Under the pieces are notes generated by a model that ran no database searches, had not been told where the DNA came from, and worked only from the letters and a program-made list of their open reading frames with translations. The position numbers were made by a program, and so were the translations under genes. From Morinoia aosen (Eukaryota > Arthropoda > Malacostraca > Amphipoda > Talitridae): 64,000 bases of DNA. The stretch spans positions 26,583,009-26,647,008 of the forward strand of contig CM059578.1 in assembly GCA_030386875.1 (NCBI GenBank), in the 5' to 3' direction. This document shows, one piece after another, positions 8,386-64,000 of this stretch (the stretch's first letter is position 1; each line of letters opens with the position of its first letter).

Positions 8386-8389
8386 ATTT

Positions 8390-8421
<32 letters not shown>

Positions 8422-39772: not shown

Positions 39773-40164
39773 GTACTGCATTTTTAGTTCGGGCTTACTT
39801 TACACGATACACACCTTGCAGATATCTTATTACTGTGGCCTTCTGATACTAGTTATTATATTTTATCAAGGTTATCGCATTGATCTTGTTTTTGTTCTCT
39901 GTTTTTATGACATACGCCTACCGTACTTTTATTTCTCTTTCTCTCTTTCAGACGTCTATAATACAGTAAAGGCATATTTTCCTCATCCTTCTACTAACAG
40001 ATTTTTATGCCCTCACAGGTTATGCAAGTTAACTTTCACGAGACACTTCTCCCGCATTAGATCTCATACTGCCATCACGGTGTAGACCAAGAGCCTCAGG
40101 ATATTGTTTCTACCGTACTGATCTATCTTGGTCATAGCATTGTTCTGGGAGACCTGCCAAGTCA

Positions 40165-40515
40165 ATTGCCTACGAAATCCCCTCAGGGGACATCGGAAAA
40201 CCAATAGGTATTAAATAGTTTCGCTTATCTATTCTAGGATGTTTGGGGACGGGCTCTTTTAGGGGAAACTTTTAGGTTATCTCCGGGACTTCTGTGATTC
40301 GTTCCCACTTGGCTTAGTCCACTTTCATGCCTTCTTTGCTGTCTCGTCTTTGTGATTTCATCCTTTCATTTCCGACTTGTTGTTTCTATGCGCCGGGCAA
40401 CCTGTGTGGGAATACACCTTGCGCACAGATGCCACGATTTTTAGTTTGTACTAGATGATCAGTTTACTTTGCTCTCTTGAGATCGCCTTTGTTGTGGCTA
40501 GGAAATCATAAGCTA
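40165..40515 (+). mobile_element. SINE-like repeat, copy 5
   Basis: Diverged copy inside the kinesin intron. It opens near CCCCTCAGGGGACATC and ends near CTTTGTTGTGGCTAGG. Order of blocks as in copy 1. Confidence 0.6.
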
Positions 40516-40882
40516 ACTAATACAATAGTAATCATCGTACGAATAAATGAAGTAGTTTTTAAAAGACAGAGCAAGACTGCTGAACTCTTTCTTCCTGCTC
40601 TGGGTTACGTGATTGGTGCTGCGTAAACAATAGTAAAACTACAAACATTCGAATTATGCTCAGTTCAATGCAGCATAACGTGTCGCTTATTCAGTGCACC
40701 TACATAGAATAACCTTCTTTTGCATCCGAAGGAAAAGGTAAACGCAAATCGTCGCAATCTCCCTCACTACTTACGAGTGGAGAGGGTACTGGGCCACACA
40801 TGCAAATTTTTACCTTGCATGCTTGTTCACTAGGTTCAATAATTTACTGCAGCATATTAAAACCTGGTACTAATTTCCACAG

Positions 40883-40999
40883 GAACAGCAAGCTGACAAG
40901 GCTGCTGCAAGACAGCCTGGGAGGGAATGCTAAAACCCTTATATTCATCAACGTGTCCCCAGCTAAGGAAAATGTTGACGAGTCGCTAACAACACTCAC
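40883..40999 (+). CDS. Kinesin motor exon: alpha-5 region
   Basis: A 117-nt exon, acceptor TTTCCACAG ending 40882 and donor AC|GTGAGT. It encodes [20 protein letters not shown], the most conserved kinesin signature after switch II, then [19 protein letters not shown]. The next residues in any kinesin would be a Y/F-A-R-V block closing the motor. No exon for that is visible before the Penelope-like insertion at 41253 or in the repeats beyond. The 1.1-kb intron before this exon holds one SINE-like copy. Confidence 0.93.
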
Positions 41000-41104
41000 G
41001 TGAGTCTCTTTCTTGTTCTGCATAAAATTCTGCCCAATATCTGTAAAAGTTACATTAACTTGAACGATTTTCGAGATAGGAAACTTATGAAAATGATAGT
41101 CCAC

Positions 41105-41239: not shown

Positions 41240-41273
41240 GATAGCCTTACCGGCAAGAACCGGTAAGGCTATC
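41240..41273 (+). other. Perfect 14-bp hairpin at the edge of Penelope copy 2
   Basis: GATAGCCTTACCGG, loop CAAGAA, CCGGTAAGGCTATC. The right arm belongs to the Penelope-like unit; the left arm is absent at copy 1. Confidence 0.8.
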
Positions 41274-43090
41274 ACCACCTCTGTGGCTTAAATAGGTTCT
41301 TGGTTTCTCTTAGTTTTAATAGTTCTCTTATCCTATCCTTTCATTCGCCGTTCGTGAATGGCGTATTCTAGTCAAAGTTTTCTCTTTAAGTAATATCGTT
41401 AAATTGCGCAACACGTTTCGTCTTTGTGCGGACAGCTTCAGGCTCGACTTGATGTTTAGGACGAGTTCGCAGCTACACGAAACGACTGTTAATACTGTGA
41501 CTGCTTTTAATGCAGTGACCAGTATAGCTTGGGTTCAGACGAGGAAGGATACTGTACAGTCATTGAAGTACATCTTGGCAAATGGCGAGGCGGGTAAAGG
41601 AAGGTTGGTGAAATCGGGGCGTACAGTTGGGGCAAAAACTATGTGTGGAGTTTTAGGGTGAGCACAGTTCCAGTATTTTGGTTATTCATAAACGGGTTTT
41701 TGTTTTGGATGAGAATTGCTTCGACTGTTTGTAGTGTGTTTTGATTGGATTTTTTGTTAATGATTTTTGTGTTGGTGACAAGGTTTTTGCGGGTGAGTTT
41801 TATTTTATGTGTATTGTTTGTGTCTATTTTTGGACCGCCGGAGGCTAAGTGCATTGTTGAACTTCTGGAGAGGGAAGTGGTTGTCATGCCAATGTACGTA
41901 CGTTTATGAGGTTCGCATCCTCATGGGTGCAAGTGAATTCGTACACGACATTAGTCTGTTTCAACTAGGGGGTGGTGGGTTGTGATTTTTCTTGGAGATT
42001 GGGCTGGTGATCTCAGAACACTTGTATAGAACAATAACTTGTAATATTTTCATTTGAGTTATGCAACTTGTGTGTATTTTCACGATTTGTTTCAATATTC
42101 TTTCGTCTGTTTTATATGCCGTGGAGTACTGGATTTGATCATACACTTTGTGGACCTTTTGTTGTTAAGTGTTTTCTTCACGTTTAGATAAGTAGATTTT
42201 GAGGATGTTATTTTGTGCGTTGTATAATTTGTGGAAGCAACGGAAGTATTGTTGCGAGTTCATGATGACAAATCCAGCCCAACTGCGAATCCATTGAATT
42301 GATTTCAATAAAAAATGAGCTGGTTTTATTTCAGTAATAATGCAGAAACACACAAACTAAACATAATACAGAAAAACTCATACAGGGCAGCAGGAACAGT
42401 AGCAATTTAGAGAGATTTTGTTCGTTGTATGACAAAAAGATCGCGACATCTACTCAAGCTGCCGGAAAATGCAGCGTATTCTTCACTATGTGACCGACGA
42501 GGTTGTGGGGGTGGGCGGGCCGCAGTCGATCAATCCCAACAATGAAGTTATTACGCAATATATATGGAGGATATAGTGTGCAATAATTTTTACATGCTAA
42601 GGTATTAAATAGAAAGGAGTAGATATTCTACTCAGGATTTTTTATTGTAACGATTTTCCCGCTATTATTTCAAAAACGCTTCATTATACTTCGTAGGCAC
42701 TTCAATGACATTTTGGATCAAATTCAACTGTCCATGCATTGATCTAATGTTTTCAGTTGCTCTGCGTAGTTTTGTATACCGACTAAGTCAGAAAACTTTA
42801 CTTTAAATTACATGTATTAAGCAAATTAGTAGCTACTTTCTTAACAGACAAACAGTGGGTTCAAAGAAAGGCAATGACGCTGTACAAAAATATGAAGTTT
42901 ACTCAACTTAATAATCCCCCTTCATGAATTACCTGAATAAATCTTTATTATTCAATTTACATCCTAGAATTAAGTTCAAAGAGAAGGAATAATTATTATT
43001 CGTACATGACAATAAAACTTTCACTTCAGACAGGCAGGAGAGACGTCTGCTCTTACGCACACGGCACCGCAGGGGGTAGACGAGCTTAAT
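41253..43090 (-). mobile_element. Penelope-like element unit, copy 2
   Basis: Nearly identical to 12674-14510 over its whole length and ends at the same GAGCTTAAT. It carries the same broken GIY-YIG endonuclease region on the minus strand (frames 42353-42165, 42146-41961 and 41887-41639), plus one further frameshift near 42166 that splits the first frame. Sequence beyond 43090 differs from that beyond 14510, which sets the unit boundary. Confidence 0.8.
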
Positions 43091-44720
43091 GTTGGTGCAT
43101 TTTGTTAGATGCATTTAAACATCATCAATACAGTAGTTTTGCAGCTGGAGATGTGCTTTAGCATAACAGCCATATGATCAAAATTAAAGTTTCACTACGG
43201 TGGCCCAAAAATATGGCATTAGCCGTCTTGGTCTGCTTCATAATCTGTACATAACGCGTTCTGAACGTGGTAAGTTCGCTACTCAAATAATTTGGTTAAG
43301 CAGATCAGCAAATATGAGAATGAAGTAGTAAACATTACACCGGCTGCATAATATTCATTTTGAGTACAATATCACATGCATCGCTTAAGTGTAATTCCCG
43401 CAAGATCATATCAAGCAAGCTAAAAAAAACATCTAAATTTTTTTAACCAATATCTACATTCCAAACTTTACAGCAAGGTTTGAGCAAAAAACCTCTAGAT
43501 CTAGCTATTGAATATCTAGAGTGTCAGGATGCCTTCACACCAAACGATTTGATGAGAGAAAGCAAGCGAGCTTGAATTGATTAACATGGATTCCTATGGA
43601 AGTGCATACACTGCAAGCAAGCAAGAGAGCGAGCGAGAAAGACTGAAGATTGGCTGAAGCGAGACACAGAGTCGAAAATTGTTTCACGCTTGAGAGTTGC
43701 AGCTAGAAGCTGGCTGCCTGGTAGTGCGCGGTGAGATGTCGATAAGGTTGGCGTACTGCTCAATTTCTCCAGCATACACTGAACTTCTGATATTCGAAGT
43801 TAATGCTATACTTAGCATTTTGAACTTAAAAAATCCAAAGCACAGTGACAGATTACATGTTTCAAAGCAATGGGATGAAGTAGGAATGAAATCAACGTTA
43901 CAAACACATGCTTGAACTGCTCGTTTCTGTTATAGACATCTTTCCATGACATTTAGGAGCAAACTGTGTGTTATTTTGTGTGTGATAGATCCTGCTGACA
44001 TCTTTCTCTCTCGCTTGCTTTCTCGCTTTCAGTCTTTTGGTGTGTAAGCATCCTCAGCCCTGGTTGCCATAACTTGGCCTACGTATTTTGTTAAAAGTAC
44101 CAGATTTAGCCGTACGAAAGTCGCAGATTCCAAGGAAAAAATCCCAAGTTTTTACTTTCCTACATAAGGCTAATAAATGGGTTATTAATTCTGAATAAAA
44201 TTAGCTCACTAAATTCAAATGTGGTTTTTCATGATAGGACATAAAAAGTACCATATATTCGTAGCAGCGCTCTCCAGCATGCAAGAAGTAACAGATCTGC
44301 GTGTACACATAAATAAAATTTAAAGTATTTCCAAGTGTATACACTACGACTTCCAGAGCTCAGAATGAAATATTGACGCAATATATTGACGCGTCCAAAT
44401 GGACGTTTCAATATATTGACGAACCATCAATAAAAATCAAAATGATTTGATTCCGTCAATACATTGAGTCAATTAATTGACGGTCGTCAATCAAGCCCAC
44501 ACACGATCAATATCATTGTCAATGTTCAGCATTGACAATTATATTGACAATTAAATCTACCGTCTATGGGCTCAAACTCATTTTATTGCGTCAATACATT
44601 GAGTCAATTAATTGACGGTCGTCAATCAAGCCTACAGACGATCAATATAATGGTCAATACTCATCATTGTCAATAATATTGACAATAAAATTGATCGTCT
44701 ATGGGCCGCTTAAGAATTAA
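43091..44720. repeat. Left arm of a 6.7-kb inverted repeat
   Basis: Reverse complement of 48190-49815 at roughly 90% by eye. From the outside in it carries an antisense hAT transposase scrap (43091-43260), a small TIR element (about 43527-44057) and a Harbinger-type subterminal repeat block (44380-44715) closing with GGGCCGCT then TAA. The arms share all of these in mirror order. Confidence 0.85.
43527..44057. mobile_element. Small TIR element inside the left arm
   Basis: Ends are CAGGATGCCTTCACACCAAA and, inverted, TTTGGTGTGTAAGCATCCTC. Next to them lie AAGCAAGCGAG-type purine-rich blocks in opposite orientation. Its mirror copy is at about 48850-49382. No transposase. Confidence 0.55.
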
Positions 44721-48189: not shown

Positions 48190-49815
48190 CTGTAAAGCGG
48201 CCCATAGACGATCAATTTTATTGTCAATATAATTGACAATGATGAATATTGACAATTATATTGATCGTCTGTGGGCTTCATTGACGACCGTCAATTAATT
48301 GACTCAATGTATTGACGCAATAAAATCGGTTTGAGCCCGTGGACGATACATTTCATTGTCAATATAATTGTCAATGATGAACATTGACAATGATATTGAT
48401 CGTGTGTGGGCTTGATTGACGACCGTCAATTAATTGACTCAATGTATTGACGAAATCAAATCATTTTGATTTTTTATTGATGGTCCGTCAATATATTGAA
48501 ACGTCCATTTGGACGCGTCAATATATTGCGTCAATATTTCATTCTGAGCTCCGGAAGTCGTAGTGTATACACCTGGAAATACTTCGAATTTTATTTATGT
48601 GTACTCGCAGATCTGTTACTTCTTGCATGCTGGAGTGCGCTGCTACGAATATGTGGTACTTTTTATGTCTTATTATGAAAAATATCATTTGAATTTAGTG
48701 AACTAATTTTATTTATAATTATTAACCTATTTATTAGCATTATGTAGAAAAGTAAAAACTTGGGACTTTTTCCTTGGAATCTGCAACTTTCGTACAGCTA
48801 AATCTGGTACTTTTAACAAAATACGTAGGGCAAGTTATGGCAACCAGGGCTGAGGGTGCTTACAAACCAAAAGACTGAAAGCGAAAAAGCAAGCGAGAGA
48901 GAAAGATGTCAGCAGGATCTATCACACACAAAATAACACACAGTTTGCTCCTAAATGTCATAGAGAGAAGTCTATACCAGAAACGAGCAGTACAAGCATG
49001 TGTTTGTAACGTTGATTTCATTCCTACTTCATCCCATTGCTTTGAAACTGTAATCTGTCCCTGTGCTTTGGATTTTTTGAGTTCGAAATGCGAAGTACAG
49101 CATTAACTTCGAGTATCAGAAGTTCAGTGTATGCTGGAGGAATTGAGCAGTACGCCAACCTTATCGACATCTCACCGCGCACTACCAGGCAGCCAGCTTC
49201 TAGCTGCAACTTTCAAGCGTGAAATAATCTTCGAGTCGGTTTCTCGCCTCAATCTTCAGTCTTTCGCGCTCGCTCTCTTGCTTGCTTGCAGTGTATGCAC
49301 TACCATAGGAATCCATGTTAATCAATTCAAGCTCGCTTGCTTTCTCTCATCAAATCGTTGGTTGTGCAGGCATCCTGACACTTTAGATATTTAATAGCTA
49401 GGTCTATATGTTTTCGCTTAAACCTTGCTGTAAAGTTTGGATTGTAGATATTAGCTAAAAAAATCTAGATAGTTTTTTTAGCTTGCTTGATATTATCTTG
49501 CGGGAATTACACCTAAGCGATGCATATGATATATTACTCAAAATTAATATTATGCATTCGCTGTAATGTTTACTACTTCATTCTCATAATATTTGCTGAT
49601 TTACTTAACCAAATTATTTGAATAGCGAACTTACCACGTTCAGGCCGCGTTATGTTCAGATTATGAAGCAGACCAAGACGGCTACTACCATGTTTTTGGG
49701 CCACCATAGTGCAACTTTTAACTGTGATCATATGGTTGTTATGCTAAAGCACATCTCATACGGCAAACCTATTGATGATGTTTAAATGCCTCCAACAAAA
49801 TGCACAAACATCAAA
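48190..49815. repeat. Right arm of the 6.7-kb inverted repeat
   Basis: Mirror of 43091-44720. It begins TAA AGCGGCCCATAGACGATCAA, a Harbinger-like end with its TAA target site, and ends inside an hAT transposase frame that continues past the arm to 50065. Confidence 0.85.
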
Positions 49816-50490: not shown

Positions 50491-50771
50491 AAAATCTCAT
50501 CAATATATTGAGTCAATGATATTGACAATTAAATTGATCGTCTATGGGCTCAAACTGATTTTATTGCGTCAATACATTGAGTCAATTAATTGACGGTCGT
50601 CAATCAAGCCCACAGACGATCAATATAATTGTCAATATTCATTATTGTCAATTATATTGACAATAAAATTGATCGTCTGTGGGCCGCTTTAGTGGGCAAA
50701 AAAAAATCTCGTCAATATATTGAGTCAATGATATTGACAATTAAATTGATCGTCTATGGGCCGCTTTAGAT
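50491..50771. repeat. Harbinger subterminal repeats and ends
   Basis: Repeated ATTGACAATTAAATTGATCG and GTCAATTAATTGACGGTCGT blocks, with two ends reading ATCGTCTGTGGGCCGCTTTA (near 50695) and ATCGTCTATGGGCCGCTTTA (near 50770). GGGCCGCT plus TTA fits an AGCGGCCC inverted end with a TTA/TAA target, as in the arms of the large inverted repeat. Confidence 0.7.
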
Positions 50772-52736
50772 CCGGTAGGTCAGAATTTTGATCCCATTGC
50801 TAGTGTAGTGGAAAATAGCGAGGTTGATGGCTATTTGGAGAATTTGTTCAGCGTGGAGTCTATTGGGCTGAAGGAAGATTCTTCAGACTTTGACGAGCTT
50901 CAGGTAGCCAAATTTGCAGAGTCTGTTGAACAAAGAGGAGACGAATATTATGTCGAGCTTCCTTGGTACTCGGAAAAACTGTCTAAAGTTTATTGTGGTT
51001 TTGTAATAGCAAAATCTGTGTTAGATAGAGTTGTTACAGACCTGAGGTCGAGGAATCTCTTCGAAATTTACGGGGGAGTATTTAAACAACAACTTGATGA
51101 TGGAATTATCGAAGAAATTGATTTGAAACAGTTGAATAAAACTGACCATTCATGGATACCGCACCGGCCAGTTGTTAAGTGTGATACTCAATCTACAACT
51201 AAAGTGCGGCCAGTGTTGAATTGCTCTTGTAAGACTAAAAATTCATTTTCTGTTAATCAGTGTGCTTATCCTGGTATAAACTTATTGCAGACAATTTTCT
51301 TTCTATTGATGAATATTAGATACAACTTGTATCTTTTAATATCCGACATCCGGCAGGCTTTCCTGAGAATTAAATTGAAGTCAGTGTTCGATAGAAACAG
51401 GTTTTCTATTTTGTGGTACGATGACTTTGGAGAATTAAAAGCATACAGATATAAGTCAATAGTGTTTGGATTCGTTTCTCCACCATTCATTTTAAACTAC
51501 ATAATTAAGTTGCACGTGTCAAAGTACCCTAAAGATCTTTGTTCAAAATTTTTGTTGAATTATTTTTACGTTGATAATTTATTCATTACGGGCAATAGCC
51601 TGGAGGTGCTTCGTGGGTTGTACGAGCAAGCCTGCTCTCGCATGAACTAGGGAAATTTTGAATTGCGTTCATGGGTATCAAACTCTGATTTCCTTAATTC
51701 TTTGTACAGCAAGGACAGCCGTGGAGCTCAGCATGAAGCAGGTTGTGAAAATCTTTTGGGTTATTTGTATTTGCCGAATTCAGACTCAATGAAGCTCGGT
51801 AAAGTGGAGTTCTCAAGCGGGAAACCGTGTAAACGATCAGTCTTATCCTCCCTTGCTAAAATAATCGATCCTCTGGGCCTTTATTTTCCGGTGCTTGCTG
51901 GTCTCAAGATTTTACTGAGGGATCTGTGGATTCGTAAGCTCGGGTGGGATGAGGACCTGCCAGAGACTCTAGCGGCGCAGTGGAATAGGCTTAGGAAGGA
52001 TTCGTTGTCTCTCACTTCAGTATATTTTGAGCGAAAAGTTGCAGACGAAGGCGATAACGTACAATTGATAATCTTTACAAATGCTTCGAAGGATATGTAC
52101 GGTTTTTGTGTTTATTTGAAGTCTGAAAACTCTCCTGAAGGTAAACCTAATCTTATCTTTGCTAAGGGGAAAAGTGCTCCCCTCAAATCGAAAACTATCC
52201 CTACATTAGAACTGTTGGCAGTTTTTTGGCTCTGAAATGTTTCTTTAGCGTCTATGAGTCTTTGTAAAGTTTTCAATTAAAAGAAATTTTCATTTGTGTA
52301 GACTCCCAGGTGGTCATCTCTTGGATCTTATCTGGGAACGTAAAAACGAAAAATGTGTTTGCGCGTAACCGTGTGAAAGATATAAAATCTTTGCTTTCAG
52401 AAATAGCTGTAAAAACTGGTGTGCAGATAAAGTTCAGGTACGTCTGTTCTAGCGTAAATCCTGCCGACATGGTATCTCGTGGGGTAGGGGCTGAGCGATG
52501 GATGCGTAATCTGGATTTTTGGAAACATGGGCCTGATTTTCTTCAAAGCACCCCAGTTAGTTGGCCACAAAGTTCTAATTCCTGTTTGTCTCGGGAGTCT
52601 GCAGAGTTGGTTTCAAATCCTTCTTTTTAAGAGGATAAGAAACCTGTGGTTCAAATTGATAGGTATTCTAAGTTGAGAACTCTGCTATTTGTAACTGCAT
52701 TCTTGTATCTATTTATTGATTGACTTTCCTCAATAA
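50772..52736 (+). pseudogene. BEL/Pao retrotransposon pol remnant (RT and RNase H)
   Basis: One long frame from 50772 to 52235 with a single TAG at 51648-51650. It carries HSWIPHRPVVKCDTQSTTKV, a RPV.NCS motif, LISDIRQAFLRI (first catalytic Asp), SPPFILNYIIKLH and NYFYVDNLFITG (the YVDD box, here YVDN). After the stop come LSSLAKIIDPLGLYFPVL and an RNase H start IFTNASKDMYGFCVYL, then TIPTLELLAVF. A shifted frame (52310-52630) contains YVCSSVNPADMVSRG, the BEL-type RNase H end, and VVQIDRYSKLRTLLFVTAFL lies near 52650. Gag, protease, integrase and LTRs are absent. The Asn in YVDN and the stop show it is inactive. It abuts Harbinger sequence at its left edge. Confidence 0.9.
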
Positions 52737-52890: not shown

Positions 52891-53074
52891 CTGAATCATG
52901 GAGCTAGCTGAAATCAAAAAACTTCCTTCAGCATCGTTTGCTAGCAAGTCGGCCGTGTATCGGGCTTTAGGTAAAATATTAAAAATTGCTCGCAGCAAAA
53001 AGGCGCAGGGCATCTTCGAGCGTCTTGAAAAAAAGGATCCAGAGTTCAAAGCAGAACTCCAGCGAGTTGTTATC
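52891..53074 (+). CDS. Unrecognised gene, exon with start codon
   Basis: First visible exon of a plus-strand gene that continues to the right edge. The acceptor TTTGTTTCAG ends at 52890 and the donor ATC|GTAAGTATG follows 53074. The ATG at 52898 is taken as the start because all three frames have a stop inside this exon near its 5' end (the ATG frame has TGA two codons before), so the exon opens with 5' UTR. It encodes 59 residues starting MELAEIKKLPSASFASKSAV, then a basic amphipathic helix (YRALGKILKIARSKKAQGI and FERLEKKDPEFKAELQRVVI). I know no family with this N-terminus. It ends in phase 0. A BEL/Pao remnant ends about 150 bp upstream. Confidence 0.75.
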
Positions 53075-53516
53075 GTAAGTATGATTGAATCAAACAGAAT
53101 CAAACAAAGTAAAAACTAACACAAATCACATTGCCACATAGCGCTAACTTGATATAAATTCGGTTATAACTGCCATTTTCTGGATGTTTTGCAAGCGAAT
53201 CTTTTACCAACTATCTATTTACGGTGTTTTCTTCTCTATGACCACAAAGCTGATGAGTATGCTTGCTTTGACTACGACGAATCTTTCTCGACAACGTATA
53301 GTGAAGCACTGCCAAGCTTGCCAGTGACGCGCTACTTCAGTCACGCGAACGTACGTGTGAACGCGAGTGTTTTGACCACACTAGGAAGTCTCATCCTCCC
53401 TTATAATTTACTTCGTACGAGTCAGTCTCTTACTTCCATCCCCACGATAGTGGATAAACAATCAATACAGAAAAAAAATTTAATTGAAAATCCTATGATG
53501 TAATTTCTCGTTACAG
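53075..53516 (+). other. Intron 1 of the unrecognised gene
   Basis: A 442-bp interval with GT...AG borders (GTAAGTATG, TTACAG). No repeat family seen. The frame at 53189-53503 inside it has no domain. Confidence 0.65.
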
Positions 53517-53580
53517 AAACCTCGCGTGGGCGCTGCAGGCAAGAAGTTGCCTCCTGGAAGCAGCCTTGGCGTCTGCGCTG
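53517..53580 (+). CDS. Same gene, second exon
   Basis: A 64-nt exon: acceptor CTCGTTACAG ending 53516, donor GCTG|GTGAGG. It encodes KPRVGAAGKKLPPGSSLGVC, a basic, Pro/Gly-rich linker. It starts in phase 0 as the previous exon requires and ends with one base (G) of the next codon. Confidence 0.75.
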
Positions 53581-53619
53581 GTGAGGAATTTTTTGTAGTT
53601 GTTACTAGTGATGTAGCTT

Positions 53620-54240
53620 ACTCAATTCATGGAACAAAAATCTAATGTTGTTGCAAATATTGAAGAAAAGCTTGCACGCTATTCCTGTTGTCATGCATCC
53701 ATTAACACATGTGATTATTTTTATAGATCTATGCAAGCATATCGTGTAAGATTGCGAAGTCGTTTCAAGGGTAAGAATGCACAGAAGCAAATACAATGCT
53801 GTGATAAAGAATGTTCTAGGCGCACGCCTTAAAGACAATTGGTTACTGACATAAGAGATAAAAAATGTAGTTTGTTGCTGGATAAGAAGAAAAATACATC
53901 CATCTATGAAATGTAACGTATTATTATATATTTTAGTAAGAGCAAAAAAAATTGTTTACACCTTCTTAAGTCTGGTTGCATTGTCTAGTGATGCTGATGG
54001 CATTGTTGAGGTATTGAAAAATGAGCTTGCAAAATAGGTACTTTCAATGCCAGTGTTATGGTAGGAGTGAACAAAGGTGTGTTTAAGAAGCTGGAAAAAG
54101 AACTTCCATCGTTGATTCTTGTTAGATGTGTCTGTCATTCACTGCAATTAGCAATATCCCACGCCTCACCTGAGGTTCTGCCTGGAAATTAGGAATTTCC
54201 AATTGCAAAAATACATAAATGGTTAGCCTACTTCTATAAC
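53620..54240 (+). pseudogene. hAT-type transposase remnant in intron 2
   Basis: Plus-strand pieces SCCHASINTCDYFYRSM, then (past a stop) LVTDIRDKKCSLLLDKK, DADGIVEVLKNELAK and NASVMVGVNKGVFKKLEKEL followed by LVRCVCHSLQLAIS. The last is the diagnostic DN..VM.G...G....L....P.L....C..H.L.L block of hAT transposases. Several stops and frameshifts. The right side ends where a Tc1/mariner-like end begins at 54241. It belongs to the same family as 49640-50065 but is a different copy. Confidence 0.85.
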
Positions 54241-54563
54241 TTTAACATAAGGTAGCGATCGTCGAAATGAACACCCTTTTATTTTATTAAGGTATGGTGT
54301 AAAATGCTTAGTTAAAGAGTTACAAGGACTTGAAGTTGGACAGTTATTAAAACTAATTCGCACTCTCTCTTGCGGAGACGAATCCAAGGCGGTAAACTGC
54401 GGCATATCAATGGCAAGGATACGAAATGAGAAGTTTAGCAAGTATGTGAAACATATATTATTATTAATTAACTTCAACTTTTTAATGTTGTGATAAGGAG
54501 AAAGCATTTTCGACAGTAGTTATTATGAGTACAACAAACGAAACCGTAAACTAGGTTACATTG

Positions 54564-55404
54564 TTACAAAAATTGTTCAAAATGCCGCCCATTTGTTTCG
54601 ATGCAGGCGTTCAAACGCCTCTCCAAAGATTGGCGGACGCGAGCAAAGATACCAGGAGTTTCACAAATTCTTTCCGAGGTTTCAACAATCCTACCCATCA
54701 GGTCCTCTTCGGATTGAATCGGTGTTTCATACAATAAACGTTTCATATGCCCCCAGAAAAAAGTAATCTAGGGGCGTAATATCAGGAAATCTTGGTGACC
54801 ACGCGAAGGGACCGCCACGGCCTATCCAGGGATTGGGATATCGGGCATCCAATAATTGCCTAACTGCAACCGCAAAGTGTGCATGAGCACCATCATGTTG
54901 AAAATACATTCCTCTGATGTCAGCGAAAGGTACATTTTCCAGTAGTTCTGGCAATACTTCATTAAGGAAAATGTAATACGTACGTCCATTTAGTCTCTCT
55001 GGTATGATGTATGGCCCAATCAGATGGTCACCAATAATTCCTGCCCAAACATTTACGGCGAATCTAACCTGATGTCGAAATTGTCATGTAACATGTGGAT
55101 TGTTGCCAGACCACATGTGCAGGTTATGGAGATAGAGTATTCCTTCTCAAGGAAATGACGCTTCGTCTGTGAATAAGACTCGTGATGGGAAACGAGGTTG
55201 TTGATCTGTTTTCTGTTGAAACCACCTCGCAAATTCAACACGACGTTCGAAATCTTCCCGTGCGTGCAATTTCTGCAAACGCTGAAAGTGAAATGGGTGT
55301 TGACCACTGTTAAGTAGTACTTGCCACGCAGTAGTTTTGCTTAAATGTAAAGCCCGTGCACAAGAACGAGTGCCTGAAGTAGGATTGTTTCGAAAATATT
55401 CTAA
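54564..55404 (-). pseudogene. Tc1/mariner-like transposase, catalytic part
   Basis: Read on the minus strand: EYFRNNPTSGTRSCARALHL and SKTTAWQVLL (second helix-turn-helix), PFHFQRLQKLHAREDFERRV, SRVLFTDEASF (first catalytic Asp), FRHQVRFAVNVWAGIIGDHL, GMYFQHDGAHAHF (second Asp) and WIGRGGPFAWSPRFPDITPL then DYFFL (third Asp). By my count 41 residues separate the second and third Asp. The end is LLYETPIQSEEDLMGRIVET. Damage: a frameshift just after TDEASF, a TGA in place of the usual Trp after NPHVT near 55090, and a frameshift after DYFFL near 54755. Inactive. Confidence 0.9.
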
Positions 55405-56478
55405 AGTCGCGTACTCACTTGTAGACATGTTGCGCGATTTTGGTCTCTGAGACCTGTCTAGCGCAGTCTACGTAGAGGCGTCTATAAACCAACCGTCATC
55501 CGCAAGTCGGTTGCAAGACCAAAAGTCTCAGGTCTATAGTCTCCCGATCGGAATGGGAGACAGCGTGCAACGGTAGACATGTTGCGCCACGTTTTGCTAG
55601 TATATACGACATTTGCAAAGATAGACGATACGCACAGGGTTGCCGGATTGGCCATTTCATGGCCAATTTACACAAAATTGACATTTTAAATGCATTAGCC
55701 ATGAGAAAATATACTTGGCAATTTTTTACCTATATCATACGACTATCGGTTGGTGACACAATATTGTCAATGTATCAAGTTAAATAGTATTGTGAGGTAT
55801 TATTTAACAATATCTATAAATTTTTAGGTGGCTATTTTTTACTTTTTCTCATAAAATGTGACTCCATCTTCCACCTCCAACCCATCACATTCCCCATTGT
55901 CTGACGATTCGCATGACAGTTATTCTGCAAATCAAAATACATCACCTGTTCCATTTCAGTAGCAATCAGAGTCAAGGGTTGAAGGTATCAATGATATGCA
56001 AGAATTTCTGTGGTGCATGAACACCTGTACCAATATGTAATTAGAACAATAATGCCTGAAACTTGTGAGTTTGTTCATGAAAGGCGATGTTAGAAAAGTC
56101 GTTAGTAGCATATTTTGATGAGAAAGTAAAGGACCTTAGTTCATCATACAACAGTATTGACGTAAGATTCATCCATTCGGACTTTCTTCGTTTTTGATTT
56201 TATTACTACGTACTAAGAGTATAATTAGCTCCATTTTTTGTGGTCGAACGCTATCTTGCTTGCTTTCTTGTGCAAGATTTACTATTGTACTGGAATAATA
56301 TGAACAAGGAAGCAGTACATGTCAATATAACTCATAGCTTTTCTTTGAAAAATTAACAGGTATAGACAGTAAAATATCTTGTACTCTTAATACCCAACGG
56401 TATGTAACCATTAAATCATTTGAGTTAGAGGCATCTATTTTAAGCCCTGAATAATATATTTTTAATAAGATACGTGAG

Positions 56479-57060
56479 TTATCGTGGGCCATAGGCTTTT
56501 TTTCTGTAAGATATTCCCCCAATCCACGAGTGCGGAGCGTATCCGAAAGGAGGTCCAAAACTTGAATAAATACTTCCGTTTAATGTAAATTCGTGTTTCA
56601 TATATACCTTTACATGTTTTAATGATGAGGTTATTACTTCGCAAACCTCTGGTACCATCTGCGATATTGCCTGCTTAGACATTCTCAACGTATACATGAG
56701 GCTCGTGAAAGAGTCTCCACTTGCTAAGAAACGCAGTGTGACTGCTAGTCGAAGAGAAGCTGGGATAGATTCTCTAAATTTTGTATTCATTTTCGTTATC
56801 AGTCCTTCAACCATCAGCAGCAAATCTTCAAAATCAGTAGGGGTTAGGCGTGTGAAATTTCGAAAACCCATGGCGTCTTCCAGTCTTAATTTATTTAATA
56901 ATGAAATTCCGAGACTAAGTCTTTCTGCAAACACTTTGTGATTCCACCAAGGTTTACGTGTTCTCGTTCTTTCACTAGCAATTAGCGCTAAGCAGGAACT
57001 TACTCCGCACAAAGCAATATCCTCCATGACGTACCGCCTGAGACTAAACGAGAAATTCAA
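56479..57060 (-). pseudogene. PIF/Harbinger transposase, N-terminal part
   Basis: 193-codon frame with RTRTRKPWWNHKVFAERLSL, LLNKLRLEDAMGFRNFTRLT, FEDLLLMVEGLITKMNT, then SIPASLRLAVTLRFLASGDS and SFTSLMYTLRMSKQAISQMV. This is the HARBI1-like N-terminal layout (W...L..R...G....LL..LR..D...F.NF.RM....F..LL, ..RL..TLRFLASG, then the helix-turn-helix). After residue about 150 it no longer resembles the family, and neither the catalytic Asp pair nor the final Glu can be found. Probably an internal deletion, leaving a non-autonomous element. Confidence 0.9.
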
Positions 57061-57093
57061 ATCGTAGTGCGGACGCTAGGCGAGGCAAAACCG

Positions 57094-57224
57094 GAGTCTA
57101 TAGACGGTCGATAGACATGTCTATAGACATGTCTATGGACGGTCTATAGAAGGTGTATAGACATGTCTATAGACGGTGTATAGACATGTCTATAGACGGT
57201 CTATAGACCATGTTTATAGACACG
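57094..57224. repeat. Subterminal palindromic array in the Harbinger element
   Basis: About ten occurrences of TCTATAGAC or TATAGACATGTCTATAGAC just inside the right inverted end. Subterminal repeats are commonly transposase binding sites; that role here is inference. Confidence 0.75.
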
Positions 57225-57257
57225 TCGCGCAACATGTCTACAAGTGAGTACGCGGCT

Positions 57258-57500
57258 TAAGACACCTTCCACCTTGTCGGGTTCTGCTACTCTCCTTTGG
57301 CATCTTCCTTCAGGTCGTGGTCGGTGAAATGATCCGTGTTCACGTGAACTCCGGTGTATGGCTGTGAATGTTTGACGCGATGGAACACGTCTGTTAGGAC
57401 GCCTTTCTGCGTAAATTCGAACAGCCTCCCTAGAATTTCCATTTGCTTCACCAAACACTAGGTGCATATCCGTCAATTCAGCATTGGATCCTCCCTCCAT
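57258..57500 (-). pseudogene. Tc1/mariner-like transposase, N-terminal part
   Basis: The minus-strand frame starts at 57500 (MEGGSNAELTDMHLVFGEAN) and continues SREAVRIYAERRPNRRVPSR, QTFTAIHRSSREHGSF, the DUF4817-type helix-turn-helix head found on one group of arthropod Tc1/mariner-like transposases. Its last genuine codon is the TTA at 57260-57258. The frame then enters the Harbinger end. The codon phase matches the other half at 55404. Confidence 0.9.
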
Positions 57501-57739
57501 TGCTGGTGATACATTTGCAGCCGAAGAAGTACTAACAGTAAACTAACTAATCTTTGTCGTTGATGTCGAGGAGCACTCAGAATATCGGATGAAAAGTAAC
57601 TTCACATATTTGTAACTTTTTAACTAAGCATTTAGACCATACCTTAATAGAATAAAAAGTGTTCATTTCGACGATCGCTACCCTATGTTAAAGTTTGGCA
57701 ACAAAAGTGTCGGCACCCTGTATATATACGCAAAATCAT

Positions 57740-58640
57740 TTCCTACTGTTATTTTGAACGTAGAAGCTTGATTTTGGCCTCATTCGACGCGGAAAGGCAG
57801 TGGCACCTCAAAAAAAACATTTTTTGGATATCGGATTTTCAATAATTATTAATTTCTTTGTCCAAACAATTTCTTTTTCAGAATTTTCAAAATTGTAGTT
57901 TTTTTCTTTTTATTCCACCTAGAGCAGCGGTCTCCAAACTATGGCCCGCGGGCCATATCCGGTCCACCAGTGTAATCAATCTGGCCCGTAACAATACTCA
58001 GTAGTAATTTAACTAGCGAATTTAGCAGCGTATGCTCACTCAGGGCACGTACTTGCCGACTACTCTAGAAATTATAGATAATGGCCGAAAAATTAAAACA
58101 GTTTTGGCCCTTGGAACTTAATGGAGTGATCAGTATGGCCCTAAGGCTGGAAAGGTTGGAGACCCCTGACCTAGAGGAACGAAAATGCATACAGATTTCT
58201 AAAATTGAATTTTGAACCGATGTGCTTCTTTAAAAGTTTTCGATTTTTGCAATAGAGAAAAGTTATTCTGCGAACATATAATATTTATTATCAAAAAATT
58301 TATTTGCGCAAAACACCACTTCTTCTACAATTTTCAACTTAGAAGCATGATTTTGGTCTCATTCGACGCCGTACGACAGCGTAGCGAAGCGGAATTCTAT
58401 TTGAATTCCAATAAGGTTTTACAGTGAACATCTGGGATTTTTTTTTAAATTTTTTACATATGGATCAATAAAAATATTTATTTTCAAAATTAAAAAATAC
58501 TTCTTCTTCGAAGTGCCACGGTCTTTCCGCGTCGAATGCGACCAAAATCAAGCTTCTAAGTTTATTGTTGTAGAAGGAGTAGGGTTTTGCACAAACATAT
58601 TTAGTTTATGCGTTCGCGCAATAACTTTTTATGTTGTGGA
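57740..58640. repeat. Diverged repeats around the hAT MITE
   Basis: The block with ATTTTGG-CTCATTCGACGC occurs near 57772 and 58350, and inverted near 58520 (CGTCGAATGCGACCAAAAT). The hAT MITE is inserted between the first two. An older, unidentified repeat forms the host. Confidence 0.6.
57925..58168. mobile_element. hAT-type MITE with intact target duplication
   Basis: 244 bp. Starts CAGCGGTCTCCAAACTATGG and ends AAGGTTGGAGACCCCTG, flanked by ACCTAGAG on both sides (57917-57924 and 58169-58176). The 8-bp duplication and CAG...CTG ends are hAT features. Contains GGCCCGCGGGCC near 57943. A longer relative is at 32995-34485. Confidence 0.9.
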
Positions 58641-58843
58641 ATAGAAATGTATGCCAGTGAAATATTAAAAAATTAGGTGAATTAGGTGAGAGTAGGAAGT
58701 CCTCTTACCAAGCAGGGCAAAAATATTTTCACATCGGCCAATCTCGTGATAACTGTGTGTGTGTTTGTGGCTTTGGGGCTGTGTGAGTGATTCTGTCTCA
58801 TGTTCAATTTTATGCTCAATATCAGCAATATTATTTTGTGTAG

Positions 58844-59459
58844 GAGGTGCTGGTACAGCTGGTGGTGCAGATGCTGATGCTCCTGGTGATGCTCCTGCTG
58901 CTGCTGCTCCTGCTGCTGCTGCTACTGCTGCTGCTGCTCCTGCTGCTGCTGGTGGTGGAGCTGCTGCTGGTGGTGGAGCTGCTGCTGGTGGTGGAGCTGC
59001 TGCTGGTGGTGGAGCTGCTGCTGGTGGTGGAGCTGCTGCTGGTGGTGGAGCTGCTGCTGGTGGTGGAGCTGCTGCTGGTGGTGGAGCTGCTGCTGGTGGT
59101 GGAGCTGCTGCTGGTGGTGGAGCTGCTGCTGGTGGTGGAGCTGCTGCTGGTGGTGGAGCTGCTGCTGGTGGTGGAGCTGCTGCTGGTGGTGGAGCTGCTG
59201 CTGGTGGTGGAGCTGATGCTGCTGCTGATGCTGATGCTCCTGCTGCGGCTGCTCCTGCTGCGGCTGCTCCTGCTGCGGCTGCTCCTGCTGCGGCTGCTCC
59301 TGCTGCGGCTGCTCCTGCTGCGGCTGCTCCTGCTGCGGCTGCTCCTGCTGCGGCTGCTCCTGCTGCGGCTGCTCCTGCTGCGGCTGCTCCTGCTGCGGCT
59401 GCTCCTGCTGCGGCTGCTCCTGCGCTTGGAGCCTGCGCGCACGAGCAGCAGCTGCGCGA
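58844..59459 (+). CDS. Same gene, Ala/Gly and Ala/Pro repeat exon
   Basis: A 616-nt exon: acceptor TTATTTTGTGTAG ending 58843, donor GCGCGA|GTGAGT. Entry phase (two bases completing a Gly codon with the G of the previous exon) fixes the frame as GGAGTAGGADADAPGDAPA..., then 15 blocks of Gly3 alternating with Ala3 (18-bp unit GGTGGTGGAGCTGCTGCT), a short ADAAADADAP bridge, about 12 blocks of AAAAP (15-bp unit GCTCCTGCTGCGGCT), and an end ALGACAHEQQLR. All six frames are open through the repeat, including poly-Leu and Gln/His frames, but only this one joins both neighbours in phase. The C-terminal HEQQLR starts the coiled coil of the next exons. Confidence 0.75.
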
Positions 59460-59663
59460 GTGAGTCTTCTTGTTACCTTTATTCTCATTGTCATGGGTTG
59501 TCAGCGGTGGAGGCAAGAACATTCAACATTAGTTACGATTAGTTACAAAGAATATAGATTTAAATGTGTAACATTCTTACGAATACTATATCATGTACAC
59601 ATTCAATAATGTCTTATGCACTAACTACTATTCTATTTACTTGTCGCTGTTTTTGTTCAACAG

Positions 59664-59733
59664 CCAGGAGCAATCGTTCGGGAAGCTCGCCGCCGATCTC
59701 GCCAGAGAAAAAGAAAAAAACCAGAATCTAGAG
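59664..59733 (+). CDS. Same gene, coiled-coil exon
   Basis: A 70-nt exon: acceptor TTGTTCAACAG ending 59663, donor GAG|GTAATT. The first base completes Asp with the GA left by the previous exon, giving DQEQSFGKLAADLAREKEKN then QNLE. Charged heptad-like sequence typical of a coiled coil. Ends in phase 0. Confidence 0.85.
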
Positions 59734-60027
59734 GTAATTAATTGGAAAGCACGGGTGAAGTGCTGCTTCGATTGTGTTTCCTTTTCTCAAGAAGCGCCTG
59801 CCTCATTTCTATATGTATACTGTCCTTTGTGGTGTAGATGTTGTGCAGTTGAGATATTCTAACCGTGAAATTCTAGTTGCTTTCCCAAGGGGATACATTG
59901 ATATGGTATCTTCGGGAACTAACGCGTATAATAGAGAAGATTTGAGGACCTGAGTTTATTGAGGACCTGAGTTTATTAGGCATTCCTATTTTTCAAGTTG
60001 GAGAGGTTTTTGTTTTCCCAGATATCC

Positions 60028-60365
60028 TTCAGGGGGATGCAAATTTTGTATCTATGGGAATTAGCGCTCCCAGGGGGAAAATGTGAGGGCTCGAACTGAG
60101 AGTTAGGTTGGCCTTCTTTTTGCTAAAATAAAATATTTTTTGTTAAGTTAAGGACCACTTTTTTCGGTTCATTGTTGTCCTGTTTTTCAGTACCTACTAT
60201 TTTCTTCTTCAATTTTGATCTAGTTTCAATAACTTCTATCTCAGTTTACTGTTTCTTTGCCCCATCTGCATGGATTCCTCATTCTCTAATCTCCATGCTG
60301 AATGGTGCCTTCCTCCTTCCTCTCTTCGATACGCTCTTTTTCGTAGCGGTTAGGGAGGCTTAAAC
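60028..60365 (+). mobile_element. SINE-like repeat, copy 6
   Basis: Full-length family member, from GGGGGATGCAAATTTTGTAT to GGTTAGGGAGGCTTAAAC. The duplicated counterpart is 62085-62384, whose 5' part is missing because the duplication junction falls inside this repeat. Confidence 0.8.
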
Positions 60366-60419
60366 TAAATCATCTTAATTTTTAAATTTTGCCAGACTAT
60401 CGTTTTTGATTCACCAAGG

Positions 60420-60648
60420 TTCAGTGTTGTAGCACTTCTGACTCGCTTTCTTTTTCCTATTTTCATAAGCTTGCTTCTCGACTCGCTAATTCTGCGCAAA
60501 GGGGATTTTGTGTGGGTACGTATCTTGTGCAATAATTCTGCGTTCTCCTTAACTTCATACTAAATGGTGCCTTTTTCCTTCCTCTCTTTGGATCGCATTT
60601 GTTGAGGATAGGGAGGCTTAAACTAACTAATAATCTAATCTAATCTGC
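60420..60648 (+). mobile_element. SINE-like repeat, diverged partial copy 7
   Basis: Contains TTGTGCAATAATTCTGCGTT, CATACTAAATGGTGCC and GGATAGGGAGGCTTAAAC, then a (TAATC)n tail. Counterpart at about 62440-62667. Confidence 0.7.
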
Positions 60649-61189
60649 AGTGAAATACGAACTCGGTGCCTTGCGGTATAATTAATTTGTTGAAAGTAAA
60701 ACGGGTGGATCTAAATAATCCTGCGTCTAAGGCAGCGAGGTTGACATTCAGAACCATATTCTTATTCCTACGTATAGACTAGTATTCCAATCAAGGCACT
60801 CGTAGAAAATGTCTTCTATCACGTAACGCAAATATTTCCATGCTAATATGATATTTCCAAGCTAATAATATTGCCATAAAACAGTCTACATGAGTCAGAA
60901 ACTTGAAAATGGTTATTCTACACCGGTTACCAAGAAATGTATAACCTAATTAGAGAGGTACGTGAAAGTGACCACCAAGATAGGGTTATCATAACATTCT
61001 CAAGAGCGCATTATGATTTGCATCACACAGGACTAACAAGAATGATTTGGAACGTGAATAATTGATGAACACATTAGTGTTCTATAAATATTTTTGAGTA
61101 CTTTTATTGTAGCTAGTGGCTGGAACTAACTTGTAATCTAATCTCATTTTGAGAAAAGTAATGACATGAATGCTTACAGTGCGCCTCCC

Positions 61190-61546
61190 CTCAGGGGATA
61201 CAATTACTGTATCAATGGGAATTAGCGCTCCCAGGGGGACAACGTGATGGCCCGAGCTGAGAGTTAGGTAGGGCTTCTTTTTGCTGAAATAAAATGTTTA
61301 TGTCAAGTTAAGGACCACCCTTTTTTCGGTTCACTGCTGTCCTGTTTTTCAGCACCTACTACTTAATTCTTTAGTTTTGATCCTGTTTCATAATCTTCTT
61401 TCACAATTTACTGTTTCTATGCCCTATCTGCGTAGATTCCGCGTTTCCTTAACTCCAAACTAGATGGAGCCTTCCTGCTTCCTCTCTTTAGATCGCATTT
61501 GTTGCTGCGGGTAGGGAGGCTAAAAATAACGACTAATATAATCTAA
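61190..61546 (+). mobile_element. SINE-like repeat, copy 8, abutting an exon
   Basis: From CCCCTCAGGGGATACAATTA to GGGTAGGGAGGCTAAAAATA with a TAATATAATCTAATC tail that runs into the splice acceptor at 61554. Counterpart at 63209-63565. Confidence 0.85.
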
Positions 61547-61554
61547 TCTTACAG

Positions 61555-61626
61555 CGCGCCCTGCAGGAGCTCAGGGCCCAGCTTGATGCTGCGCTGGCGC
61601 GTCTGGCCGAGCTTGAAGAGCCGGAG
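61555..61626 (+). CDS. Same gene, coiled-coil exon (first copy of duplication)
   Basis: A 72-nt, phase 0-0 exon: acceptor CTAATCTTACAG ending 61554, donor GAG|GTAATA. Encodes RALQELRAQLDAALARLAEL then EEPE, continuing the coiled coil without a break. The acceptor lies a few bases past the tail of a SINE-like copy. The exon is repeated without change at 63574-63645. Confidence 0.85.
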
Positions 61627-62039
61627 GTAATAAGTTTAAAGGGTTTTTTAGGATCTGGCCATGTGATGTTACGTGCAAAGATTTTGGTCGGTGCCATCTA
61701 CAATTTGAGGCGTTTCCTAGTTGATGAGGTGGTCTTCAAATAGAATGCACGACTGCAACGAGTTAAGCAAGTTGTATTATTCGACATTAATTCTTTTTAT
61801 ATCTGCACCTTAAAATGTCAAGATAGGCTTTATGCCCGCTGTTTTTTCATCATTATCATTTTTTTTTCTAGTGAAGCGAAGTATTTGCACAACATTGGGC
61901 GGAAACTTTTCTCGAGGCTCTCAAATGATGTGTTCATTAGTCGTGTTGGTGAAATATTGACAATACCGAAATTTAATACTTGACTGAGATCATTTTCTAT
62001 CTTTAAAACACCGGTTCCAAACTGTGGAATCGCGTTTAC

Positions 62040-62054
62040 ACACACACACACACC
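62040..62054 (+). repeat. CA microsatellite at the duplication junction
   Basis: ACACACACACACACACC lies about 30 bp upstream of the start of unit 2. Confidence 0.85.
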
Positions 62055-62085
62055 CCTGAGCTCGGTGTCGATCGTGCGCCGTGCC

Positions 62086-64000
62086 TCCCAGGAGGAAAAT
62101 GTGTGAGGGCCCAAGCTGAGTTAGGTTGGCCTTCTTTTTGCTAAAATAAAATGTTTTTTGTTAAGTTAAGGACCCCTTTTTTTCGGTTCATTGTTGTCCT
62201 GTTTTTCAGTACCTACTATTTTCTTCTTCAATTTTGATCTAGTTTCAATAACTTCTATCTCAGTTTACTGTTTCTTCGCCCCATCTGCATGGATTCCTCA
62301 TTCTCTAATCTCCATGCTGAATGGTGCCTTCCTCCTTCCTCTCTTCGATACGCTCTTTTTCGTAGCGGTTAGGGAGGCTTAAACTAAATCATCCTAATTT
62401 TTAAATTTTGCCAGACTATCGTTTTTGATTCACCAAGGTTCAGTGTTGTAGCACTTCTGACTCGCTTTCTTTTTCCTATTTTCATAAGCTTGCTTCTCGA
62501 CTCGCTAATTCTGCGCAAAGGGGATTTTGTGTGGGAACGTATCTTGTGCAATAATTCTGCTTTCTCCTTAACTTCATACTAAATGGTGCCTTTTTCCTTC
62601 CTCTCTTTGGATCGCATTTGTTGAGGATAGGGAGGCTTAAACTAACTAATAATCTAATCTAATCTGCAGTGAAATACGAACTCGGTGCCTTGCGGTATAA
62701 TTAATTTGTTGAAAGTAAAACGGGTGGATCTAAATAATCCTGCGTCTAAGGCAGCGAGGTTGACATTCAGAACCATATTCTTATTCCTACGTATAGACTA
62801 GTATTCCAATCAAGGCACTCGTAGAAAATGTCTTCTATCACGTAACGCAAATATTTCCATGCTAATATGATATTTCCAAGCTAATAATATTGCCATAAAA
62901 CAGTCTACATGAGTCAGAAACTTGAAAATGGTTATTCTACACCGGTTACCAAGAAATGTATAACCTAATTAGAGAGGTACGTGAAAGTGACCACCAAGAT
63001 AGGGTTATCATAACATTCTCAAGAGCGCATTATGATTTGCATCACACAGGACTAACAAGAATGATTTGGAACGTGAATAATTGATGAACACATTAGTGTT
63101 CTATAAATATTTTTGAGTACTTTTATTGTAGCTAGTGGCTGGAACTAACTTGTAATCTAATCTCATTTTGAGAAAAGTAATGACATGAATGCTTACAGTG
63201 CGCCTCCCCTCAGGGGATACAATTACTGTATCAATGGGAATTAGCGCTCCCAGGGGGACAACGTGATGGCCCGAGCTGAGAGTTAGGTAGGGCTTCTTTT
63301 TGCTGAAATAAAATGTTTATGTCAAGTTAAGGACCACCCTTTTTTCGGTTCACTGCTGTCCTGTTTTTCAGCACCTACTACTTAATTCTTTAGTTTTGAT
63401 CCTGTTTCATAATCTTCTTTCACAATTTACTGTTTCTATGCCCTATCTGCGTAGATTCCGCGTTTCCTTAACTCCAAACTAGATGGAGCCTTCCTGCTTC
63501 CTCTCTTTAGATCGCATTTGTTGCTGCGGGTAGGGAGGCTAAAAATAACGACTAATATAATCTAATCTTACAGCGCGCCCTGCAGGAGCTCAGGGCCCAG
63601 CTTGATGCTGCGCTGGCGCGTCTGGCCGAGCTTGAAGAGCCGGAGGTAATAAGTTTAAAGGGTTTTTTAGGCTCTGGCCATGTGATGTTACGTGCAAAGA
63701 TTTTGGTCGGTGCCATCTACAATTTGAGGCGTTTCCTAGTTGATGAGGTGGTCTTCAAATAGAATGCACGACTGCAACGAGTTAAGCAAGTTGTATTATT
63801 CGACATTAATTCTTTTTATATCTGCACCTTAAAATGTCAAGATAGGCTTTATGCCCGCTGTTTTTTCATCATTATCATTTTTTTTTCTAGTGAAGCGAAG
63901 TATTTGCACAACATTGGGCGGAAACTTTTCTCGAGGCTCTCAAATGATGTGTTCATTAGTCGTGTTGGTGAAATATTGACAATACCGAAATTTAATACTT
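62086..64000 (+). repeat. Tandem duplication, unit 2 (cut by window end)
   Basis: Begins at CTCCCAGGAGGAAAATGTG, corresponding to CTCCCAGGGGGAAAATGTG at 60067. Runs to the window edge, about 105 bp short of a full unit. Confidence 0.93.
63574..63645 (+). CDS. Same gene, duplicated coiled-coil exon (second copy)
   Basis: Base-for-base copy of 61555-61626 with the same acceptor and donor. Because the exon is 72 nt and in phase 0-0, including both copies would keep the frame and add 24 residues to the coiled coil. The gene continues beyond the window. Confidence 0.8.

What the first reader, a model, noticed from the sequence alone, without database searches (positions are those of the whole stretch)
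52891..63645. A spliced gene with an Ala/Gly then Ala/Pro repeat domain leading into a coiled coil
Six exon candidates join with matching phases at every boundary (0, then 1 base/2 bases, then 2 bases/1 base, then 0, then 0). The phase match singles out the Ala3-Gly3 and AAAAP frame among six open frames. The predicted product is a short basic helix, a basic Pro/Gly linker, about 190 residues of near-perfect low-complexity repeat and a coiled coil. I recognise no such protein. The two repeat units (18 and 15 bp, both multiples of three) could allow length variation without frameshift.
Basis: partly seen in the sequence, partly recalled or inferred. Interest (0 to 1): 0.78.

Follow-up and report, generated by a model that had tools for sequence, protein, structure and literature searches.

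The report
Orphan coiled-coil gene, retroposon-duplicated exon
An animal-type gene of unknown family, with a long alanine-rich spacer and a coiled-coil tail, appears to have been lengthened when a mobile element landed on one exon's splice site and neighbouring copies of that element later recombined to double the exon.

Summary
Borders and phases are exact. In exons 1, 2, 4 and 5 the chained frame scores best of six under a codon model trained on other ORFs of the window. None of 228 decoy exon frames reaches exon 2, 4 or 5. The heptad register runs on from exon 4 into exon 5. No relative of the N-terminal or coiled-coil part was found in a database that does hold eukaryotes.

Exon 6 is a 100% copy of exon 5, inside a 2,019-bp tandem duplication (1818/1823 identical) whose left edge lies inside a dispersed repeat, here called R: the mark of unequal crossing-over between R copies. 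And one R copy sits exactly on exon 5's splice acceptor, flanked by a 13-bp target-site duplication (12/13) that carries the acceptor and the first six exon bases. Each extra exon copy would add 24 residues in frame.

The gene runs off the window: its end, copy number and expression are unknown. The protein's function is inference only.

The parts
52891..53074 (+). Exon 1: ATG at 52898 (in-frame TGA at 52892-52894, acceptor-like TTTCAG ending at 52890), 59 codons; basic, predicted three short helices
53517..53580 (+). Exon 2: basic Pro/Gly linker (21 codons and one base)
58844..59459 (+). Exon 3: Ala/Gly then Ala/Pro low-complexity domain
58942..59215 (+). Perfect 18-bp minisatellite, 15.2 copies, encodes (AAAGGG)n
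59235..59423 (+). Perfect 15-bp minisatellite, 12.6 copies, encodes (AAAAP)n
59664..59733 (+). Exon 4: first part of the coiled coil
61555..61626 (+). Exon 5: 24-residue coiled-coil unit, symmetric phase 0-0, 71% GC
63574..63645 (+). Exon 6: identical tandem copy of exon 5
60159..61981 (+). Tandem duplication unit, copy 1 (exon 5, element R2, flanking intron); 1818 of 1823 positions identical to copy 2; period 2019 bp
62178..64000 (+). Tandem duplication unit, copy 2, still running at the window's end
62085..62177 (+). Left edge of copy 2: R-type sequence only 84/95 alike to 60067-60158, then 99.7% alike; probable crossover zone inside R
60026..60368 (+). Element R copy R1 in intron 4; the upstream partner of the proposed crossover
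61186..61547 (+). Element R copy R2, sense orientation, its tail abutting exon 5's splice acceptor
61173..61185 (+). Upstream copy of the 13-bp target-site duplication (one C to T difference from the downstream copy)
61548..61560 (+). Downstream copy of the target-site duplication: contains exon 5's acceptor and its first six bases
63205..63566 (+). Element R copy R4 = duplicate of R2, before exon 6; target-site duplication copies at 63192-63204 and 63567-63579
54238..57695 (.). Stretch of intron 2 bounded by 42-nt inverted repeats (93% complementary): mobile-element-like sequence that accounts for most of the intron's length

Best explanation
This is the 5' part of a real, lineage-restricted, spliced gene (probably of an animal) whose protein grows by in-frame repetition at three nested scales: an 18-bp Ala3Gly3 minisatellite, a 15-bp Ala4Pro minisatellite, and a 2,019-bp unit that carries a 72-nt phase-0 coiled-coil exon. 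History of the third level, inferred from sequence: (1) a retroposon-like element R inserted six bases into exon 5; the 13-bp target-site duplication recreated the splice acceptor on the far side of the element, so the exon could still be spliced, now with R's TAATC-rich tail just upstream of the AG; (2) unequal crossing-over between the R copy upstream (R1) and an R copy downstream duplicated the interval, giving exon 6. Protein function, inference only: a basic helical head, a long Ala/Gly-Ala/Pro spacer and an acidic coiled coil would make an intracellular dimeric tether in which repeat number sets spacer length and exon copies set stalk length. Shown here: anatomy, phases, coding bias of the frame, target-site duplication, duplication and its edge. 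Inferred: transcription, splicing, order of events, protein function.
For: Exact GT-AG borders and phases. Chained frame best of six in exons 1, 2, 4, 5; top 3.9 to 0.03% of open windows. 0 of 228 decoy frames reach exon 2, 4 or 5. GC islands at exons 2, 3 and 5 in AT-rich surroundings. Best heptad register of exon 4 continues into exon 5 as expected (1 in 7 by chance); joint score reached by 22 of 20000 within-exon shuffles. R is dispersed: further copies near 9289, 36410, 38433 and 39088. The 36410 copy has its own 17-bp target-site duplication (16/17), R2 a 13-bp one (12/13) abutting the element's 5' end. The duplication edge lies within R: 84/95 on one side, 1818/1823 on the other.
Against: No transcript data and no homologue, so translation is not proven. 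Exon 1's GC is unremarkable (15.9% of windows reach it) and exon 4's only mildly high (7.1%); exon 4 alone has no significant heptad pattern (2669 of 20000 shuffles reach it); some splice sites are moderate (acceptors of exons 1, 3 and 5 in the top 7.2, 6.5 and 8.1% of AGs). Of four independent R copies tested for target-site duplications, 2 (R2 and 36410) have one abutting the element, 2 (9289 and R1) do not; truncated R1b has none. Adding exon 6 breaks the heptad phase, since 24 is not a multiple of 7.
Confidence: 0.77

Rival explanations
1. The GC-rich repeat and its neighbours are not coding: the minisatellites are ordinary intergenic or intronic arrays, and the exon chain was picked out of many possible splice-like sites.
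For: The repeat units contain no stops in several frames, so openness of exon 3 alone means little; splice consensus matches are common and several here are moderate; no homologue.
Against: The chain through exon 3 lands in the best-scoring frame of each non-repeat exon tested; decoys with equal splice scores gave 0 of 228 frames as good; register continuity across intron 4.
Confidence: 0.12
2. It is a recently decayed relic of a gene: the frame is still open, but transcription or splicing has failed after mobile elements filled introns 2 and 4.
For: Intron 2 holds a 3.5-kb stretch bounded by inverted repeats, intron 4 several R pieces; use of the upstream copy of the acceptor would run into a stop after 26 codons.
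Against: No stop, frameshift or broken splice dinucleotide in any of the exons.
Confidence: 0.12
3. The exon 5/exon 6 duplication is an assembly artefact (two haplotypes placed in tandem).
For: 99.7% identity (1818/1823) is within the range of allelic difference, and the second copy runs to the window's end.
Against: The left edge is a junction inside R between sequences only 84/95 alike, with no similarity to copy 1 before 62085: expected for unequal exchange between dispersed repeats, not for two alleles laid side by side.
Confidence: 0.2
4. The coding strand is the other one: a minus-strand ORF of 285 residues (58665-59522) covers the repeat.
For: It is open through the repeat.
Against: Any triplet repeat without stop trinucleotides is open on several frames; the reverse frames of exons 1, 2, 4 and 5 score below the forward chain, the closest being exon 5 with 4.9 against 7.4 bits.
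Confidence: 0.03

Closest known systems
Canine merle allele: SINE at the intron 10/exon 11 border of PMEL17 (PMC7349775, abstract and passages seen)
   Same: Short retroposon inserted at a splice acceptor; a 15-bp target-site duplication contains the original acceptor; the element's tail lies just upstream of the acceptor that is used, where tail length tunes splicing.
   Different: Merle's SINE is in reverse orientation with a poly(A)/poly(T) tail and impairs splicing; R2 is in sense orientation with a TAATC-type tail, and was afterwards doubled together with its exon. Effect of tail length untested here.
SINE-mediated tandem exon duplication, e.g. pig VWF exons 17-18 (PMC5919753, passages seen)
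   Same: Intragenic tandem duplication with SINE-type repeats at the break points, explained by unequal homologous recombination.
   Different: The VWF duplication shifts the frame and causes disease; here the 72-nt exon is phase 0-0 and the copy keeps the frame open.
Introners, introns made by transposable elements with splice sites taken from target-site duplications (PMC9860276, passages seen)
   Same: A splice site recruited from a target-site duplication.
   Different: Introners create a new intron inside an exon; R2 landed at an existing intron/exon border and lengthens an existing intron.
Ala/Gly- and Ala/Pro-rich low-complexity proteins (silk-type, viral Gly-Ala repeats; recalled, no call)
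   Same: Amino-acid composition only.
   Different: No sequence relation tested or seen; no signal peptide is apparent by eye; coiled coil at the C-terminal side.

Membership tests
Spliced protein-coding gene | Open frame across GT-AG borders with matching phases | tested here: met
   357 codons, six exons, no stop
Spliced protein-coding gene | Coding-type codon use in the chained frame | tested here: met
   codon model from 1158 codons of other ORFs in the window, partly of mobile elements
Spliced protein-coding gene | Spliced transcripts or protein | not testable with these tools
   no RNA data
Any known protein family (Pfam) | Score above a family's curated cut-off | tested here: not met
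   full protein 11 weak families, none above cut-off; exons 1-2 no family at E<=10; coil 48 families at E<=10, none of the 25 shown above cut-off
Coiled coil | Continuous heptad pattern | tested here: met
   exons 4+5, 22 of 20000 shuffles reach the score; exon 4 alone is not significant (2669 of 20000); register breaks between exons 5 and 6
Non-LTR retroposon (SINE-like) for R | Dispersed copies with a simple-repeat tail and target-site duplications | tested here: met
   copies on both strands, TAA- or TAATC-type tails; border duplications in 2 of 4 independent copies tested
Non-LTR retroposon (SINE-like) for R | Pol III promoter boxes or RNA-derived head; a partner LINE | tested here: inconclusive
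   no Rfam match in the window at gathering scores; promoter boxes and partner LINE not examined
Exon duplication by unequal crossing-over between repeats | Tandem copies whose junction lies within a dispersed repeat | tested here: met
Merle-type acceptor insertion | Target-site duplication contains the splice acceptor | tested here: met
   61173-61185 and 61548-61560
Merle-type acceptor insertion | Tail length controls acceptor use | not testable with these tools
   needs alleles and RNA

The most novel reading that the evidence does not exclude
The locus is a self-lengthening coiled-coil gene caught in the act: an unstable retroposon tail forms the branch-point and pyrimidine region of a 24-residue cassette exon, and the same retroposon family provides the homology for repeated unequal exchange. 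The number of stalk exons (perhaps more than two beyond the window) and their inclusion then vary between individuals together with the two minisatellites, giving a protein whose spacer and stalk lengths are both heritable, fast-evolving variables.
Probability: 0.15. Interest if true: 0.7.

Novelty: new variant of a known kind. Interest (0 to 1): 0.48.

Why it matters
Each step is known separately: retroposon insertion at a splice acceptor, a target-site duplication rescuing the acceptor, repeat-mediated exon duplication, minisatellite growth in coding sequence. Here they lie in order in one gene without relatives, with marks fresh enough to read (99.7% identity between copies, 12/13 target-site duplication). 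If expressed, it is a test case for how a new repetitive protein lengthens without losing its frame, and for whether a retroposon tail can act as the control region of a cassette exon.

Tried and rejected
Homology: exons 1-2 part against 5.8 billion proteins (76 candidates, none E<=1; only proteins of about 196-625 aa can be candidates, so a much longer relative could be missed); coiled coil (the 7998 candidates sharing most words scored, none E<=0.01); PDB sequences (one hit, 2lvs_A, E 0.55, discarded); viral contigs (27 pattern matches, none confirmed) and bacterial/archaeal genome contigs (241 pattern matches, none confirmed); an R pattern in viral contigs (0). Fold of exon 1 alone, single sequence: pLDDT 73.7, pTM 0.46, helices 17-31, 34-46, 48-56; Foldseek against PDB: 9 matches E<=10, best 1.4, none E<=0.001; no fold assigned.

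Rejected: that open frames in the repeat prove coding; that exon 6 is independent evidence; that the reverse-strand ORF is the gene; that the tandem copy is two alleles side by side. Naming the organism: not achieved. A Pao-type peptidase ORF suggests an animal (distribution recalled); the kinesin search gave no near-identical protein among the 120 listed.

Paper searches (two searches found nothing) gave no report of the combination seen here; the library holds only open-licence papers, so this is weak evidence of absence.

Full report
Observation. All internal borders are GT-AG, phases agree and 357 codons stay open. An in-frame TGA stands just before the ATG and an acceptor-like TTTCAG ends at 52890, so the exon may begin at 52891 by cis- or trans-splicing; that acceptor is only in the top 7.2% of AGs.

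Chance. Phase agreement alone is weak evidence, since splice-like sites abound. I therefore trained a codon model on 1158 codons from other ORFs of the window (RING/B-box ORF, kinesin pieces, two retroelements). In the four exons tested (1, 2, 4, 5) the chained frame scores best of six, in the top 3.9%, 0.10%, 1.9% and 0.03% of open windows of equal length. I then took all 76 decoy exons of 50-100 nt elsewhere in the window, both strands, with splice scores about as good as the weakest here (generic splice frequencies recalled): 55 of their 228 frames are open and 0 reach exon 2, 4 or 5. Exons 2, 3 and 5 are GC islands (reached by 0.31%, 0% and 0% of equal windows); exons 1 and 4 are not remarkable (15.9% and 7.1%).

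Coiled coil. Exon 4 with its split codon and exon 5 each give 24 residues. Their separately best heptad registers are in phase across the intron (1 in 7 by chance); positions a read F L N L L L, positions d read L E L L A L. 22 of 20000 within-exon shuffles reach the joint score; exon 4 alone is not significant (2669 of 20000), exon 5 alone is (45 of 20000). Twenty-four is not a multiple of seven, so exon 6 restarts the register after a Pro-containing break.

Exon 6 is a copy. 60159-61981 and 62178-64000 agree at 1818 of 1823 positions, with the exon itself identical. The second copy is still running at the window's end, so more units may follow.

How it was copied. Intron 4 contains several copies of a dispersed repeat R, which also occurs near 9289 (+), 36410 (-), 38433 (+) and 39088 (-). 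The left edge of copy 2 lies inside R: 62085-62177 is only 84/95 alike to 60067-60158, and from there on the copies agree at 99.7%. A chimaeric R at the junction is what unequal crossing-over between two non-identical R copies leaves behind; side-by-side alleles would not give it.

R on the splice site. Copy R2 begins at 61186 with TCCCCTCAGGGG, like the copies at 9289 and 36410, and its TAATC-type tail runs to 61547. The 13 bp before it (61173-61185) and after it (61548-61560) match at 12 of 13; the downstream copy is the splice acceptor plus the first six bases of exon 5. Among 200000 random 13-mer pairs from the window 5 matched as well; that figure does not correct for the positions scanned. 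R at 36410 has a 17-bp duplication (16/17), R at 9289 and R1 have none abutting the element, and truncated R1b none. Reading: R inserted six bases into the exon and the target-site duplication re-created the acceptor on the exon side. The single difference is a C to T in a CpG of the upstream, now intronic copy. By the recalled splice matrix the downstream copy scores 1.3 and the upstream one -2.4; use of the upstream one would meet a stop after 26 codons.

Relatives. None found for exons 1-2 or the coil, and no Pfam family above its cut-off. The database is suitable in principle: three kinesin exon pieces of the same window found 3579 proteins at E<=1e-10, the listed ones including Trichoplax, fish, brown algae and other eukaryotes. 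Exon 1 alone is predicted as three short helices at moderate confidence, without a convincing match in PDB. Exons 1-2 are basic (pI 10.25), the coil acidic (pI 4.53).

How it may work. Inference: basic head, long flexible or helix-prone Ala/Gly-Ala/Pro spacer, acidic dimerising coil; an intracellular tether, with spacer and stalk lengths set by repeat and exon number. I give this functional reading about 0.3 by itself; gene reality about 0.8; the R insertion with target-site duplication about 0.9; the unequal exchange about 0.8.

Known parallels. The canine merle SINE sits at a splice acceptor with a 15-bp target-site duplication holding the original acceptor, and its tail length tunes splicing (PMC7349775, abstract and passages). 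Pig VWF shows a SINE-flanked tandem exon duplication attributed to unequal recombination (PMC5919753, passages). Introners take splice sites from target-site duplications (PMC9860276, passages). Two of these steps in one gene, followed by an in-frame exon doubling, were not found in my paper searches, which cover open-licence papers only.

Limits. No transcripts, no second individual or species, organism unnamed, own-genome search unanswered (8 calls), gene cut by the window's end.

Noticed in passing
39387-41000: Kinesin-type exons (best PDB sequence matches are KCBP-type motors): coiled-coil exon, then mid-motor exon 39618-39773 after a short intron, then 40883-41000; the N-terminal part of the motor does not fit between the first two, so the gene is truncated, rearranged or misassembled.
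   Followed up: partly
11830-12243: RING finger plus B-box ORF (TRIM-like).
   Followed up: no
12675-14510 and 41253-43090: 1.84-kb direct repeat, 98.7% identical, 28 kb apart.
   Followed up: no
43086-44711 and 48195-49814: 1.6-kb inverted repeat, 92% identical; its outer ends hold 135-bp tandem repeats that recur at 50550-50684.
   Followed up: no
7380-8390: Near-perfect self-complementary block of about 1 kb (90.9%), inner part 7819-8130 100%.
   Followed up: no
28571-29712 (-) and 50745-52235 (+): Reverse-transcriptase ORF fragments of a LINE-like element, and an RT plus Pao-type peptidase ORF pair that ends shortly before exon 1.
   Followed up: partly
57096-57221: Tandem array of the palindromic motif GTCTATAGAC within intron 2, inside the inverted-repeat-bounded stretch.
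   Followed up: no
60631-60651: A truncated R copy (R1b) in intron 4 also ends in CTAATCTAATCTGCAG, an acceptor-like end, but the next codon in phase 0 would be a stop.
   Followed up: partly
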